A stretch of 64,000 nt of DNA. Origin: Verrucomicrobiaceae bacterium (GTDB lineage Bacteria; Verrucomicrobiota; Verrucomicrobiia; Verrucomicrobiales; Verrucomicrobiaceae). The stretch is taken from the NCBI GenBank assembly GCA_947458455.1, contig CANGYJ010000017.1, forward strand, positions 1 through 64,000, read 5' to 3'. Below, piece after piece: positions 1 to 3,691 of the stretch. A program made the position numbers and the translations under genes. A model generated the notes under the pieces. It worked only from the letters and a program-made list of their open reading frames with translations. It made no database searches and was not told the origin of the DNA. The stretch's first letter is position 1. Each line of letters starts with the position of its first letter.

Positions 1-65
1 GCTGTCAAACTCCGCTGCGGCCTCATCTCGCTACGCTCGATGAGACCTCCGCTGCGTTTGACAGC
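1..65. repeat. 65-bp imperfect palindrome (REP-like)
   Basis: The outer arms GCTGTCAAAC (1-10) and GTTTGACAGC (56-65) are perfect inverted repeats. An inner pair, CTCATC (22-27) and GATGAG (39-44), continues the dyad. The intervening TCCGCTGC (11-18 and 48-55) is a direct repeat and forms an internal loop. The element reaches the window edge and may continue to the left. Its proximity to a REP-type transposase makes a REP relationship plausible, but that is inference. Confidence 0.6.
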
Positions 66-115
66 GTGAGAGAAACAACCAACATCAAGATCAACCCAAG
101 GAGGCTGGAACTACA

Positions 116-367
116 TTGATGATCTGTCCCACTCCAGGGAGCAGGCCATATGCTTTCGTTGAAGCGGTCAGCAAAAGTATGTCTGAAAGGGAAAAACTTG
201 TCGCTAAAGCGATGAGTGGGGATGCAGAAGCAGCTCTGGAGCTAGCCCGCCATTACTCATTCGCTGCGCAAGACGATGATAAGGCAGAATTTTGGTACAA
301 GAAGGCCGCTGATAATGGAGGAGAAAAGGAAAAGAGCATTTATGAGTCTTTTATGGAGGGAAGGTGA
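116..367 (+). CDS. small Sel1-like repeat protein
   Basis: An 83-residue protein of unknown function. Residues about 34-70 resemble one or two Sel1/TPR-like helical repeats (GDAEAALELARHY, then AEFWYKKAADNGG), a fold that usually mediates protein-protein contacts. An AAGGAGG sequence at 98-104 is a good ribosome binding site for either the TTG at 116 or the ATG at 119; the ATG is the likelier start. An internal ATG at 179 is also possible. The gene sits alone between a palindrome and a mobile patch, so it may be accessory. No signal peptide is evident. The family assignment is tentative because a single repeat is weak evidence. Confidence 0.5.
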   Translation: MMICPTPGSRPYAFVEAVSKSMSEREKLVAKAMSGDAEAALELARHYSFAAQDDDKAEFWYKKAADNGGEKEKSIYESFMEGR

Positions 368-449
368 CGCTATGAATCCCTACACAGCTCGTCGCAAGCT
401 CCTCGGCTCCGCTCTGCACTCACCACCAGTATGAACCGGGTACATAGGG

Positions 450-477
450 GAAAACGGGGTCAGGGAAACGGGGTCAG
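450..477. repeat. two copies of GAAAACGGGGTCAG motif
   Basis: Two adjacent 14-bp units, GAAAACGGGGTCAG at 450-463 and GGAAACGGGGTCAG at 464-477. They lie upstream of the IS110 remnant. The same unit recurs six more times at 709-796 and in degenerate form at the transposase start codon, so the IS110 fragment is bracketed by copies. Confidence 0.85.
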
Positions 478-554
478 GCGACATGAAGCACGGAAAATCA
501 AGGGTTCCAGCGGCATTCCCTGGTGAAAAGTGAGTTTGGTATGGTGTCGGTGCC

Positions 555-708
555 ATGAGAACCTCATCCAACACTCCGCCGTCCATCGTCACCGAAGCCG
601 CCACCTTCATCGGCATCGACTACCACAAAAAGTACAGCGTCTGGCACGCGGTTAATGCCGCAGGCTTCGACCTTGGCAAAGGCCGCATCGAGCATCACTC
701 TCCGCATG
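555..708 (+). pseudogene. truncated IS110-family transposase (N-terminal fragment)
   Basis: The ATG at 555 opens a frame whose first roughly 50 residues match the N-terminus of DEDD transposases of the IS110/IS1111 family: FIGIDYHKKYSVWHAV, which carries the first catalytic Asp in GIDxHK, followed by a G-R-I-E-H segment. Homology stops at about 708, where the GAAAACGGGGTCAG array begins. A full IS110 transposase is over 300 residues, so this is a remnant of about one sixth. No remaining part of IS110 is seen downstream of the REP-type transposase, so this is either a deletion or an insertion followed by loss. Confidence 0.75.
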
Positions 709-796
709 GAAAACGGGGTCAGGAAAACGGGGTCAGAGAAAACGGGGTCAGAGAAAACGGGGTCAAGAAAACGGGGTCAGAAGAAAACGGGGTCAG
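709..796. repeat. six-copy GAAAACGGGGTCAG direct-repeat array
   Basis: Copies start at 709, 723, 738, 753, 767 and 783. The unit is 14 bp with 0-2 bp spacers (A, AG or AA). A seventh, degenerate copy (GAAAACGGGG) at 831-840 abuts the start codon of the downstream transposase. With the pair at 450-477 there are nine occurrences in 400 bp, and I found no others in the window. The units are head-to-tail with almost no spacer, which excludes CRISPR. They may be transposon-end or transposase-binding motifs (inference). Confidence 0.9.
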
Positions 797-841
797 GGAG
801 CAACTGCTTGACAAAATCAAGCCTTGACTTGAAAACGGGGC

Positions 842-1903
842 ATGGCACGCAGCATTCGCATTCAATCCTCCGGGGCTTATTACCACGTCATGGCTCGCGG
901 GAACCGTCGTGAGGACATCTTCCACGATGATGATGACCGGCGTTTCTTTCTGCACACGCTGAGCCAGGCCTGTGAGATGACGGGCTGGCGCGTGCATGCC
1001 TGGGTGCTGATGGGCAATCACTACCATCTCTTCCTCCAGACGCCGGAGCCAAACCTCGTCGCGGGGATGTCCTGGCTGCAAAACACGCTGACACGCCGCT
1101 ACAACGTGCGGCACCGGAAGTGGGGGCGGTTGTTTGGCGACCGTTACAAGGCGGTGGTCGTGGAGGGCGAGGACCAATACCACTACCAGACGCTGATGGA
1201 TTACATTCATCTTAACCCGGTGAGAGCGCGGATGATCCGCCCGAAAGACGGGCAGAGTGTGATGGATTACGCGTGGAGCAGCATCGCGGGTGGTTACGCG
1301 TTGCCACCGAAGAAGCGGGCAAAGTGGCTGGATGCGGAGGCGGGTCTCAAAGCGTTCAACCTGGCGGATACAGTGGCGGGTCGGCGGGCGATGGTGGAGA
1401 GGTTGGACAAGCGTGCGGTGAGCGAGGAGATCAAGAGCTGTGGCGTGCCGCCGCAGGGAGAGGAGGTGGATGCACGGGCGAGCCATCTGAGGCGAGGCTG
1501 GTACTGGGGCACGCAGGCCTTTGGCGAGGCGATGCGGAAGCTGGGGCAGAAGCTCCTCAAAAAGACCGCGCCGGTGTCGCGGGCCTATCAGAAGCATGAA
1601 CTGGTGCGGGAGTACGGGGAGCGACAGGCGCTGGAGTGGCTGGTGAGGGGGCTGAAGGCGGGAGGCCTCAGAGCGGGCAGTCTCTTCCAAGTGAAAGGAT
1701 CCGATCCGAGGAAGGTGCTGCTGGCGGACCTGCTCTGGCGGCGCACGGTGGTGTCTCAGGAGTGGCTGGCGGAGAAACTGGCGATGAAATCGGCGGCGAA
1801 TGTGAGCCAGCAACTCCGTCGTCTTGACGTGAAGTCAGCGATCAAGAAGGTGCCACAAGACCTGAAACACTTTCTGGAGGAAGCCGATAACACGAACTCA
1901 TGA
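842..1903 (+). CDS. REP-associated/IS200-like Y1 (HUH) transposase
   Basis: A 353-residue protein of the Y1_Tnp family, REP-associated tyrosine transposase (RAYT) type. The N-terminal half has the hallmarks: start MARSIRIQSSGAYYHVMARGN, the HUH motif in GNHYHLFLQT (about residues 60-69), and the helix YHYQTLMDYIHLNPVRARM (about 101-119) that carries the candidate nucleophilic tyrosines. The C-terminal about 60 residues look like a DNA-binding helix bundle (DLLWRRTVVSQEWLAEKL). These enzymes cut and join single-stranded DNA at hairpin repeats. The ATG at 842 lies directly on a degenerate GAAAACGGGG unit. The reading frame is intact, so the gene may be active. Confidence 0.9.
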   Translation: MARSIRIQSSGAYYHVMARGNRREDIFHDDDDRRFFLHTLSQACEMTGWRVHAWVLMGNHYHLFLQTPEPNLVAGMSWLQNTLTRRYNVRHRKWGRLFGDRYKAVVVEGEDQYHYQTLMDYIHLNPVRARMIRPKDGQSVMDYAWSSIAGGYALPPKKRAKWLDAEAGLKAFNLADTVAGRRAMVERLDKRAVSEEIKSCGVPPQGEEVDARASHLRRGWYWGTQAFGEAMRKLGQKLLKKTAPVSRAYQKHELVREYGERQALEWLVRGLKAGGLRAGSLFQVKGSDPRKVLLADLLWRRTVVSQEWLAEKLAMKSAANVSQQLRRLDVKSAIKKVPQDLKHFLEEADNTNS

Positions 1904-1921
1904 ATGCGAATACTCGGTTAA

Positions 1922-1939
1922 GAATGGCCTTTGCCATTC
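1922..1939. terminator. short perfect hairpin between convergent genes
   Basis: GAATGGC (1922-1928), a CTTT loop and GCCATTC (1933-1939) form a perfect 7-bp stem. It lies between the stop of the REP-type transposase and the stop of convergent recJ. There is no T-tract, so it could equally be the right-end subterminal hairpin of the mobile element. Confidence 0.4.
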
Positions 1940-1975
1940 CGCCTGTTCGCAGATCAACACCTCGTCCTGAGCGGA

Positions 1976-3691
1976 TCATTCCGAGGCACGCACACTATCG
2001 AGCGTAACCTGCCACTGTTCCTGACCTCGGAAAAAGCTGCGCTGGAGGCGCATCGCCACATCCCAGGGGGCGGGGGGCAGTTTGCCGATGGGGGCATTGA
2101 ACCAGACGCTGTCCATCCCTGCGCCATCCTGCGTGAGCATGAGGCGCAGATGCTTCCCTTTGATGCTGCGGCCGGGTAGCTTCGGCATCACGCGACGGCA
2201 GAAAAACAAGGGTTCCGGGTTCTTTTGCCCGAAAGGCTCCATCAGCTTGTAGTTCTCCAAAAAGGAGAGCGTGAGGTCTTTGAGCTTCACCTCGGCATCG
2301 AGCTCCAAAAGAGGCGTCATGGCCTCATCGCTGAGGGCTTGGCGAGCAGCCGCCGAAAAGGCAACGCGAAAGCTATCGAACTTGGACTCCTCCACGGAGA
2401 TGCCGGCAGCCATGGCGTGCCCGCCGCCGCCGAGAAGGTGCTCGTGGCAGACTTCAATGGCCTCGACCAAGGAAAAACCGGGAATGCTGCGCCCGCTGCC
2501 CTTGCCCACGCCGTCTTCACCGAAGGAAACGAGGATGGTGGGACGGTGACAAAGCCGCGAAATCCGGGAGGCGACAATGCCGATGACGCCGGGATGCCAG
2601 TTTCGTGACCCGAGCACGATGGCGGAGAGATCATCGAGATCACCGAGCGTGCCGAGCATGGTCTCCGCCTCGGCGTGAACGGCTTGCTCGACGTTTTGGC
2701 GGTCTTTGTTTTGGGCTTCGAGCAGGTTGGCTAGCTCGGCGGCCGTCTCCATTTCGGGAGCGAGGAGTAGTTCCAGTGCCTTGGCGGCCGTATCCAGCCG
2801 ACCTGCGGCATTCAGACGGGGACCCAGGCGGAAGCTGACATGATGCGTCTGCACCAGACCGTCCACACCTGCGAGCTGCTTCAGGGCCCGCAGACCGAGG
2901 CGCTGCGTCTGCCCCAGTGCCTCCAGGCCACGGCGCACGAGGAGGCGGTTTTCACTCACCAGCGGCACGAGGTCCGCCACGGTGCCCAGGGCCACGAGAT
3001 CGAGCGTTTCTTTGAGGTCGAAATTCGGCGCCGGGCGTGTTTTGAGCAGCGCATGAGACACTTTAAAGACGAGGCCTGCGGTGCAGAAGTAGTGCCATTC
3101 CTCGCCGAGCTTCGGATTCACCATCGCGAGGCATTTCGGCTTCCCGAGCGGGGAAAGCTCATGGTGATCCACGATCACACAGTCTACGCCCTGCTCGGCC
3201 AGCCACGCTGTCTCATTGAGAGAGGTCGTGCCGCAATCCAGCGCGATGAGGAGGTCCGGCTTGCCGAAAAGCTCGAAGCATTTCGCCAGTCCATCCATGC
3301 TCAGACCGTAGCCTTCCTCCATGCGGGAGGGCAGGAAGAGCTTCGTCTCCAGCCCGTAGGCCTTCAAAACGAGGTGCAGCAGGGCCATTGAGGTCACGCC
3401 ATCCACATCGTAATCTCCGTAAAGAACCACCTTCTGCTTCTCATCCACGGCCTTCAGCATGCGTTCCACGGCGGCGGGCATCCCCGGCAGGAGGCGGGGA
3501 TCGCCCAGGGTGGCCAGCTTCGGCACGAGAAAGTCCCGAGCCTTTTCCGCGGTGGTGATGCCGCGCTGGGCCAGCAGATGGGTGAGCAGAGACGGCAGGC
3601 CGGTCTCAGCCGCCAGTTCGGCCGCGCCTTCGGCATCTGGCTTCACGAGCCAGCGAGGCGGACGGATGAACATGGCGGGAGTTTCAGACAT
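1976..3691 (-). CDS. recJ: single-stranded-DNA-specific exonuclease RecJ
   Basis: A 571-residue 5'-3' single-strand exonuclease of RecF-pathway recombination and mismatch/base-excision repair. The DHH phosphoesterase core is clear: GDYDVDG at about 92-98, LDCGT at about 151-155 and VDHHELSP at about 174-181, which provide the metal-binding aspartates and histidines. A DHHA1 region with GGGGHAMAAGI follows at about 415-425, then a C-terminal OB-like region. The length matches bacterial RecJ. The start at 3691 gives MSETPAMFIRPP. The gene is convergent with the mobile patch and divergent from the DUF3592 gene; no operon partner is apparent. Confidence 0.96.
   Translation of the reverse strand: MSETPAMFIRPPRWLVKPDAEGAAELAAETGLPSLLTHLLAQRGITTAEKARDFLVPKLATLGDPRLLPGMPAAVERMLKAVDEKQKVVLYGDYDVDGVTSMALLHLVLKAYGLETKLFLPSRMEEGYGLSMDGLAKCFELFGKPDLLIALDCGTTSLNETAWLAEQGVDCVIVDHHELSPLGKPKCLAMVNPKLGEEWHYFCTAGLVFKVSHALLKTRPAPNFDLKETLDLVALGTVADLVPLVSENRLLVRRGLEALGQTQRLGLRALKQLAGVDGLVQTHHVSFRLGPRLNAAGRLDTAAKALELLLAPEMETAAELANLLEAQNKDRQNVEQAVHAEAETMLGTLGDLDDLSAIVLGSRNWHPGVIGIVASRISRLCHRPTILVSFGEDGVGKGSGRSIPGFSLVEAIEVCHEHLLGGGGHAMAAGISVEESKFDSFRVAFSAAARQALSDEAMTPLLELDAEVKLKDLTLSFLENYKLMEPFGQKNPEPLFFCRRVMPKLPGRSIKGKHLRLMLTQDGAGMDSVWFNAPIGKLPPAPWDVAMRLQRSFFRGQEQWQVTLDSVRASE

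What the first reader, a model, noticed from the sequence alone, without database searches (positions are those of the whole stretch)
450..1903. REP-type transposase preceded by an iterated GAAAACGGGGTCAG array that brackets an IS110 remnant
Nine copies of a 14-bp motif (two at 450-477, six at 709-796, one degenerate at the ATG) occur only here in the window, around a truncated IS110 N-terminus. The motif abuts the start codon of an intact HUH (Y1) transposase. Such enzymes act on single-stranded palindromic ends, so head-to-tail units without spacers are odd. They may be binding iterons, a product of repeated single-strand insertion at one site, or a decoy regulating the gene.
Basis: partly seen in the sequence, partly recalled or inferred. 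Interest (0 to 1): 0.72.

Follow-up and report, generated by a model that had tools for sequence, protein, structure and literature searches.

The report
Transposon end tips stacked in tandem
The short repeats in front of this gene are copies of the tip of a mobile DNA element, stacked outside its own end, with the remains of a second mobile element that very likely inserted itself into that tip; the element family is known, but the stacking of its tips seems not to have been described.

Summary
The array is real: two units at 450-477 and six at 709-796; no second array was found in the genome. The "ninth unit" at the ATG is a conserved leader. GAAAACGGGGTCAG is the outer 14 bp of the left terminal inverted repeat (TIR) of a TIRYT element, a known Y1-transposase class with GGGGWSAS TIRs. 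A GGGGTCAG-type motif precedes 32 of 33 homologous genes and its inverse follows 23 of 34; this copy has lost its right TIR. Tip duplication is widespread: 27 of 124 TIRs collected without selecting for it have one on the outer side, at left and right ends (inner-side control: 2 of 147). The inner edge is compatible with GGGGTCAG| in 13 of 18 longer units, while the outer edge varies. This suggests repeated single additions at a fixed point, perhaps the transposase nick (inferred). The IS110 remnant very likely comes from an IS110/IS1111-like element that targets this TIR: its left end follows GGGGTCAG or a near form at 20 loci (12 exact), and a right end meets a tip-less TIR body at three. 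The transposase has a predicted DnaA-domain-IV-like C-terminus. Verdict: new variant of a known kind.

The parts
450..477 (+). two tip units, GAAAACGGGGTCAG and GGAAACGGGGTCAG, at the left of the IS110 remnant
478..554 (+). left non-coding end of the IS110/IS1111-like element (GCGACATGAAG...), joined directly to GGGGTCAG
   Evidence: same junction with GGGGTCAG or a near form at 19 loci judged by eye (window included) plus L146; 12 of these 20 exact
555..708 (+). N-terminal fragment of an IS110-family transposase, cut after about codon 51; the sequence then passes into the second array
709..796 (+). six tip units, steps 14, 15, 15, 14, 16 bp; five end in GTCAG, one in GTCAA
783..813 (+). left TIR: innermost tip unit plus TIR body GGAGCAACTGCTTGACA
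808..813 (+). TTGACA, inner end of the TIR, 28 nt before the ATG; likely -35 box (inferred)
   Evidence: 28-30 nt before the ATG in 9 of 10 genes listed, absent in L066
831..840 (+). GAAAACGGGG in the leader; not a tip unit
842..1903 (+). TIRYT-class Y1 transposase, 353 aa; HUH codons 1019-1027, presumed catalytic Tyr121 codon 1202-1204
   Evidence: Y1_Tnp 44.6 bits; alignment A1; 4er8 Z 15.8, rmsd 2.3, 155 aligned
1592..1900 (+). C-terminal domain, predicted DnaA-domain-IV-like (about residues 251-353)
   Evidence: AF2 model of residues 246-353, pLDDT 88; six best VIA rows all DnaA, 3pvp Z 8.1, rmsd 3.8, 90 aligned, next other protein Z 4.5; Z near 8 can be a mere common arrangement for helical models, and Foldseek alone is weak, best E 0.29
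1904..1910 (+). last bases shared with relatives (ATGCGAA); the right TIR that follows here in several relatives is missing
   Evidence: one search lists the window among 11 right ends without the motif

Best explanation
Identity (about 0.93): the locus is a right-truncated copy of a TIRYT element, that is a Y1 (HUH) transposase gene bounded by TIRs whose outer part is RAAAYGGGGTCAG. The repeated 14-mer is that outer part. An IS110/IS1111-like element that very likely targets this TIR inserted beside GGGGTCAG and was later cut back. Mechanism (about 0.45, inferred): the array grows by single additions caused by the element's own transposase. The enzyme nicks at GGGGTCAG| and the end is rejoined, or re-copied, to the terminus of another copy such as the sister strand, so each event adds one tip outside the element. 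The inner edge is fixed because it is the nick; the outer edge varies by a few nucleotides because cutting at the terminus is loose. Shown by sequence: tip identity, outer-side duplication at left and right ends, preferred inner and variable outer edge, and junctions that fit targeting by the IS110-like element. Inferred: that the edge is the nick, that the transposase does it, and the rejoining step.
For: 32 of 33 left ends and 23 of 34 right ends of homologues carry the motif. In TIRs without duplication, sequence information runs from about -5 to +25 relative to GGGGTCAG and flanks are near random (n = 97). 40 of 147 TIRs have an outer-side tandem duplication, against 2 of 147 on the inner side and 0.3 of 147 with shuffled flanks. 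Leaving out the loci that were fetched for being tandem: 27 of 124; units of 12 bp or more have an inner edge compatible with GGGGTCAG| in 13 of 18, against 2.0 of 18 expected for uniform edges with the same ambiguity (two of the 13, L041 and L052, by a wide range). Both ends: 10 of 32 left, 5 of 23 right. 8 of 9 TIR-tip arrays with three or more units have unequal motif-to-motif distances, which fits separate additions better than crossover of one fixed unit. Pairs of GGGGTCAG: 122 matches in 96 relatives against 37 of the reversed control (summed by hand); 48 against 6 in 145 genomes of the phylum (summed by hand). TnpAREP enzymes cleave and rejoin single strands (PMC8266576, passages).
Against: No experiment, and no two strains of one species, so array growth is never seen directly. 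8 of 27 unselected duplications have their inner edge inside GGGG and 6 elsewhere (10, 10, 17, 21 and 34 nt in, one just outside), so the edge is a preference, not a rule. TnpAREP enzymes cut at CT (PMC8266576, passages); a CT lies on the opposite strand of GGGGTCAG, but a C|T cut there falls one base from the edge seen in the unambiguous cases. Counted by genome, the pair pattern is hardly above its control: 36 of 96 genomes against 30 of 96; only the totals differ clearly. The best empty-site candidate (L025) is incomplete, as its right flank could not be confirmed as homologous. Counts are of related sequences, not independent events.
Confidence: 0.5

Rival explanations
1. Ordinary replication slippage or unequal crossing-over at G-rich TIR tips, without the transposase. 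The element only supplies an unstable sequence.
For: 8 of 27 unselected duplications are short units ending inside GGGG with 1-3 bases of ambiguity, as slippage would give; pure 7-bp GGGTCAG runs exist (L086, L088, L095).
Against: The preferred edge after GGGGTCAG (13 of 18 longer units), with at most one base of ambiguity in 8 of those 13; unequal unit lengths inside 8 of 9 arrays; near absence on the inner side (2 of 147).
Confidence: 0.25
2. Insert and collapse: a new TIRYT element inserts next to GGGGTCAG of a resident one, and recombination between the two copies removes one body, leaving an extra tip.
For: Left-end stacks: L058 holds four left ends in a row with differing bodies (same place as L027), L053 three. 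Each insertion would bring its own terminus, explaining the loose outer edge.
Against: Several tip units carry the same locus-specific prefix as the neighbour unit (L026, L103, L105), which a newcomer would not bring. The tip-less TIR bodies found adjoin the IS110-like right end, not a TIRYT right TIR.
Confidence: 0.15
3. The units are binding sites kept by selection (iterons, or a decoy) for the DnaA-IV-like domain, controlling the promoter inside the left TIR.
For: Predicted DnaA-domain-IV-like C-terminus; TTGACA of the TIR at a near-constant distance from the ATG (9 of 10 genes).
Against: Arrays also occur at right ends and at loci without a gene nearby; 22 of 32 left ends have no perfect duplication.
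Confidence: 0.08

Closest known systems
TIRYT / TIRtron (Di Nocera 2013, PMC3733652; subclass 2.1 of Quentin 2018, PMC6006769)
   Same: Y1 transposase related to TnpAREP, TIRs with GGGGWSAS at similar distance from the gene, C-terminal HTH/DnaA-like extension, dispersed TIRs in dimers or clusters.
   Different: The parts I read of these papers (abstract, section 16 and passages of the first; abstract, section 20 and passages of the second) describe no iterated tips, no fixed duplication edge and no IS110-type targeting of the TIR. Their figures and supplements were not seen.
RAYT / TnpAREP with REP or REPIN (E. coli TnpAREP, 4er8)
   Same: Same catalytic core fold; same HUH/Tyr chemistry expected.
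   Different: REPs are GTAG-tagged palindromes; here the repeated unit is not palindromic and forms no hairpin.
IS1111-family IS4321/IS5075, which target Tn21-family TIRs (Partridge and Hall 2003, seen only as a title in the reference lists of PMC11208160 and PMC11187229)
   Same: A DEDD-transposase IS that inserts into another transposon's TIR.
   Different: Here the target is the TIR of a Y1 type element, which also iterates its tip; no intact copy with both junctions was seen.

Membership tests
TIRYT (Y1 subclass 2.1) | Y1/HUH core related to TnpAREP | tested here: met
   Y1_Tnp 44.6 bits (cut-off 23); REP_Tyr_transpos 61.2 bits, below its cut-off of 80; 4er8 Z 15.8, rmsd 2.3, 155 aligned
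TIRYT (Y1 subclass 2.1) | TIRs with GGGGWSAS on both sides of the gene | tested here: met
   Met for the homologue family: 32 of 33 left, 23 of 34 right ends. The window copy itself has only the left TIR.
TIRYT (Y1 subclass 2.1) | C-terminal HTH or DnaA-C-like domain | tested here: inconclusive
   Leans to met: six best VIA rows all DnaA (Z 8.1 to 6.5; next 4.5), but Z near 8 may be a common helical arrangement, Foldseek best E 0.29, and Pfam gives only a sub-threshold LexA HTH hit in 5 of 20 members
RAYT / REPtron | GTAG-tagged palindromic repeats beside the gene | tested here: not met
   Only two inverted repeats with close arms in window 1-2500 (1-65 and 1965-2046), neither of GTAG type; no GTAGGT...ACCTAC in the window; array strand folds to 0 kcal/mol
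IS200/IS605 insertion sequence | IS200-type transposase by curated model | tested here: not met
   NF033573 20.3 bits against cut-off 55
IS200/IS605 insertion sequence | Subterminal hairpins at the ends | tested here: inconclusive
   One weak hairpin at 806-822, -5.1 kcal/mol, z -1.4; right end absent
IS110 family (remnant) | DEDD N-terminal and Transposase_20 C-terminal domains | tested here: met
   In the near-complete relative L144; the window fragment is too short to score
IS110 family (remnant) | Site-specific insertion with target halves on either side | tested here: inconclusive
   Leans to met: left junction at 20 loci; right junction ...TTCAGAGA|AGGGTGC at L040, L076, L108; L040 upstream is homologous to the IS110 3' non-coding region of L160, the other two share only its last 60 bases or so. 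No single copy with both junctions was seen.
IS1111 subgroup | Guide RNA in a long right-hand non-coding region; subterminal inverted repeats | not tested
   Short left and long right non-coding region would fit; ACGGGTCAGG at L160:430-439 resembles the target, a lead only

The most novel reading that the evidence does not exclude
TIRYT transposases carry out terminal reiteration: a HUH nick at GGGGTCAG followed by addition of one tip per event, giving a growing array of end tags outside the element. The DnaA-IV-like domain may bind these tips like boxes at an origin, so that the element builds its own iteron array.
Probability: 0.2. Interest if true: 0.75.

Novelty: new variant of a known kind. 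Interest (0 to 1): 0.5.

Why it matters
Subclass 2.1, which probably equals TIRYT, occurs in 14.9% of the strains analysed by Quentin 2018 (PMC6006769, section 20), and the texts I read assign it no cleavage site. A duplication edge that prefers GGGGTCAG in many loci gives a concrete prediction of the nick, testable with one oligonucleotide assay. It also suggests how short head-to-tail arrays can arise beside single-strand transposases, and adds a likely case of an IS110-like element preying on another transposon's ends.

Tried and rejected
Palindromic REP: rejected. Ninth unit at the ATG: rejected. GGGGTCAG as a pre-existing target left behind by TIRYT: not favoured, since the tip arrives with the element at junctions in known sequence (window after CCGCATG of IS110, compared with L144 and L153; L053 and L058 inside TIRYT genes). 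Empty sites: 21 flank pairs searched in 96 genomes, only 3 candidates scored per genome; one partial candidate (L025), not conclusive. TIR body as a DnaA box: 30 of 124 TIRs match TTWTNCACA at 8 or 9 of 9 positions against 4% of shuffles, but the consensus built on the window's own TIR scores only 6, so a lead only. Profile search of the PDB by sequence: no match at E 0.01.

Literature (open-licence PubMed Central only): RAYT/REPIN terms, 27 papers; GGGGTCAG plus transposase, 16 papers, none on this subject by title and start of abstract; TIRYT, 2 papers; IS110 and bridge RNA, 12 of 20 listed; Y1/TIR/tandem/IS200/iteron, 12 of 25 listed; IS1111/Tn21, 8 of 28 listed. Bertels 2017 on RAYT groups was not among the 15 listed; it is recalled only and not used.

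Rows dropped or judged by eye: 19 of 35 fuzzy matches were judged genuine IS110 left ends (10 with exact GGGGTCAGGCGACATGAA, one more, L152, with exact GGGGTCAG); L146 was missed by that non-overlapping search and added. In one search three of 12 arrays (L086, L088, L095) were set aside as plain 7-bp repeats; distances there are measured from motif to motif, so only their inequality is informative. In one search loci L082-L111 and later ones were left out to avoid selection for tandem repeats. In one search the loci of the own genome and of G053 were left out.

Full report
Observation. The array exists as described apart from the ninth unit. Eight units with at most one mismatch lie at 450-477 and 709-796, and the 5.35 Mb genome has only one other match with at most one mismatch. 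The window is the first 64 kb of contig C17, so its left edge is a contig end. Relatives found by the protein bear record titles such as Prosthecobacter and Verrucomicrobiaceae, with a few others; the genome itself is unnamed.

What the motif is. The protein is a Y1 transposase, with HUH at residues 60-62 and Tyr121 in an alignment of 20 sequences, 41-89% identical to it; the second His is nearly invariant (HYQ in L050). Upstream of its close homologues a constant sequence precedes the gene: RAAAYGGGGTCAG, then KGTGCAANTNNTTGACA; more distant ones keep GGGGTCAG with other bodies (L044, L045, L047). A GGGGTCAG-type motif was found at 32 of 33 left ends with enough sequence, the window included; the exception is the 42%-identity homologue L050. 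The inverse follows the stop codon at 23 of 34 right ends. Of the 11 right ends counted as lacking it, four are not plain losses: L062 has a degenerate TIR, L037 has it further downstream, in L049 it overlaps the stop codon, and L040 is interrupted by the IS110-like element. The window copy looks like a true loss: it shares TGAATGCGAA with relatives and then diverges where they continue into the right TIR. GGGGWSAS is the published motif of TIRYT TIRs (PMC3733652, section 16), and subclass 2.1 is the likely matching protein class (PMC6006769, section 20). The TIR is dispersed: 36 of 96 related genomes have it with at most one mismatch and the reversed control matches in none. Mini-elements of 61-82 bp with two inward TIRs exist (L052, L097, L136; L113 is the L052 one again).

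The protein. The model (mean pLDDT 84) matches E. coli TnpAREP 4er8 with Z 15.8, rmsd 2.3 over 155 residues. Its C-terminal part, modelled alone (pLDDT 88), gives six DnaA entries as the best rows (Z 8.1 to 6.5, next 4.5). Z near 8 can be a mere common arrangement for helical models and Foldseek alone is weak (best E 0.29), so this stays a likely, not a proven, likeness; Quentin 2018 reported Bac_DnaA_C-like extensions in this subclass (passages). Against six relatives dN/dS is 0.08-0.16, so the gene is under purifying selection. TTGACA at the inner end of the TIR lies 28-30 nt before the ATG in 9 of 10 genes listed; a promoter there is inferred.

Tip duplication. For every TIR I asked whether a perfect tandem duplication of 7-60 bp touches its outer part. 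In all loci held then, 40 of 147 TIRs had one; the mirrored test on the inner side gave 2 of 147 (L053 and L075, both complex repeats), and shuffled flanks gave 0.3 of 147. Loci L082-L111 had been fetched by a tandem pattern and bias this. Without them 27 of 124 TIRs have one. Among these the inner edge is compatible with GGGGTCAG| in 13, lies inside GGGG in 8, and elsewhere in 6. For the 18 units of at least 12 bp it is compatible in 13, where uniform edges would give 2.0; two of the 13 (L041, L052) count only by a wide range of ambiguity. Left and right ends are affected: 10 of 32 and 5 of 23 of those tied to a gene. The outer edge is mostly 5-8 bases outside GGGGTCAG, at the element terminus, but reaches up to 15 bases into locus-specific flank. 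Of 12 arrays with three or more units, three are plain 7-bp repeats; of the other nine, eight have unequal motif-to-motif distances. In the window the pieces between motifs read GAAAAC, AGAAAAC, AGAAAAC, GAAAAC, AAGAAAAC. A single unit amplified by crossover would give equal lengths, so the units look like separate events. How far the pairs spread: in 96 relatives the pair pattern has 122 matches against 37 of the reversed control, but by genome only 36 against 30; with the narrower spacing, 145 genomes of the phylum give 48 matches in 18 genomes against 6 in 4. Of 26 such loci from other genomes, four pairs of them overlapping, 7 have a TIRYT-like match within the up to 1.5 kb held on each side.

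The IS110 remnant. The N-terminal fragment has relatives in 12 of 96 genomes, own included. At 19 loci judged by eye, and at L146, its left end GCGACATGAA or a variant follows GGGGTCAG (12 of 20) or a near or decayed form, with unrelated flanks before it. Three loci show the counterpart: a TIR body without tip, preceded by ...TTCAGAGA and then AGGGTGC (L040, L076, L108). The L040 sequence upstream of that junction is homologous to the 3' non-coding region of an IS110 copy (L160); L076 and L108 share L040's last 60 bases or so. So the element very likely inserts into the TIR between GGGGTC and GGTGC, sharing AG (CT on the other strand); no single copy with both junctions was seen. This resembles IS110-family elements that target REPs (PMC11208160, passages) and IS1111 members reported to target Tn21 TIRs (title in reference lists only). 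Copies are mostly cut on the right: 12 N-terminal matches but only 3 C-terminal ones at 70% identity or more, with queries of different length. In three loci an IS110 5' fragment is followed directly by a TIR tip in the same orientation: the window, L146 and, with a degenerate tip, L096; a fourth, L058, has only six matching bases. Adjacent deletion ending at a TIR tip would give this; it is inference.

Mechanism. The most economical reading is that the transposase nicks at GGGGTCAG| and that faulty rejoining or re-copying adds one tip at a time. Slippage alone explains the short units ending in GGGG but not the preferred edge after GTCAG. Insert-and-collapse and selected binding sites remain possible. 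None of these could be tested here, since one genome per species is held. The class is known; tip iteration with a preferred edge and IS targeting of the TIR were not found in the searches made, which cover open-licence PubMed Central only.

Noticed in passing
window 1-65: Inverted repeat with 27-nt arms, 81% complementary, at the very start of the contig; may be a repeat at which the assembly broke.
   Followed up: partly
window 116-367: Short ORF with a sub-threshold Sel1 repeat match (21.2 bits, cut-off 30.7).
   Followed up: no
window 1976-3691 (-): Long ORF that looks like RecJ from its DHH-type motif (recalled, not searched), directly behind the truncated element.
   Followed up: no
L058:2850-3290 (G040:C111); L053: Stacks of left ends in one direction, truncated inside and with differing bodies, ending in a full gene.
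   Followed up: partly
L052:5588-5649, L097, L136: Mini-elements of 61-82 bp made of two inward TIRs, REPIN-like; the one in L052 sits inside a TIRYT gene in place of its middle part.
   Followed up: partly
TIRs with body TGTGCAAAT, such as L030: Some TIR bodies resemble a DnaA box next to GGGGTCAG, while the transposase has a predicted DnaA-IV-like domain; 30 of 124 TIRs score 8-9 of 9.
   Followed up: partly
L086, L088, L095: Pure 7-bp GGGTCAG tandem runs with 3-10 motif copies, apparently ordinary short repeats.
   Followed up: no
L160:430-439: ACGGGTCAGG in the 3' non-coding region of the IS110-like element resembles its target and could be a guide sequence.
   Followed up: no
own genome: Twelve Y1_Tnp matches (two of them halves of one 391-aa frame on C2), of which the window gene is one; the others were not studied.
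   Followed up: no
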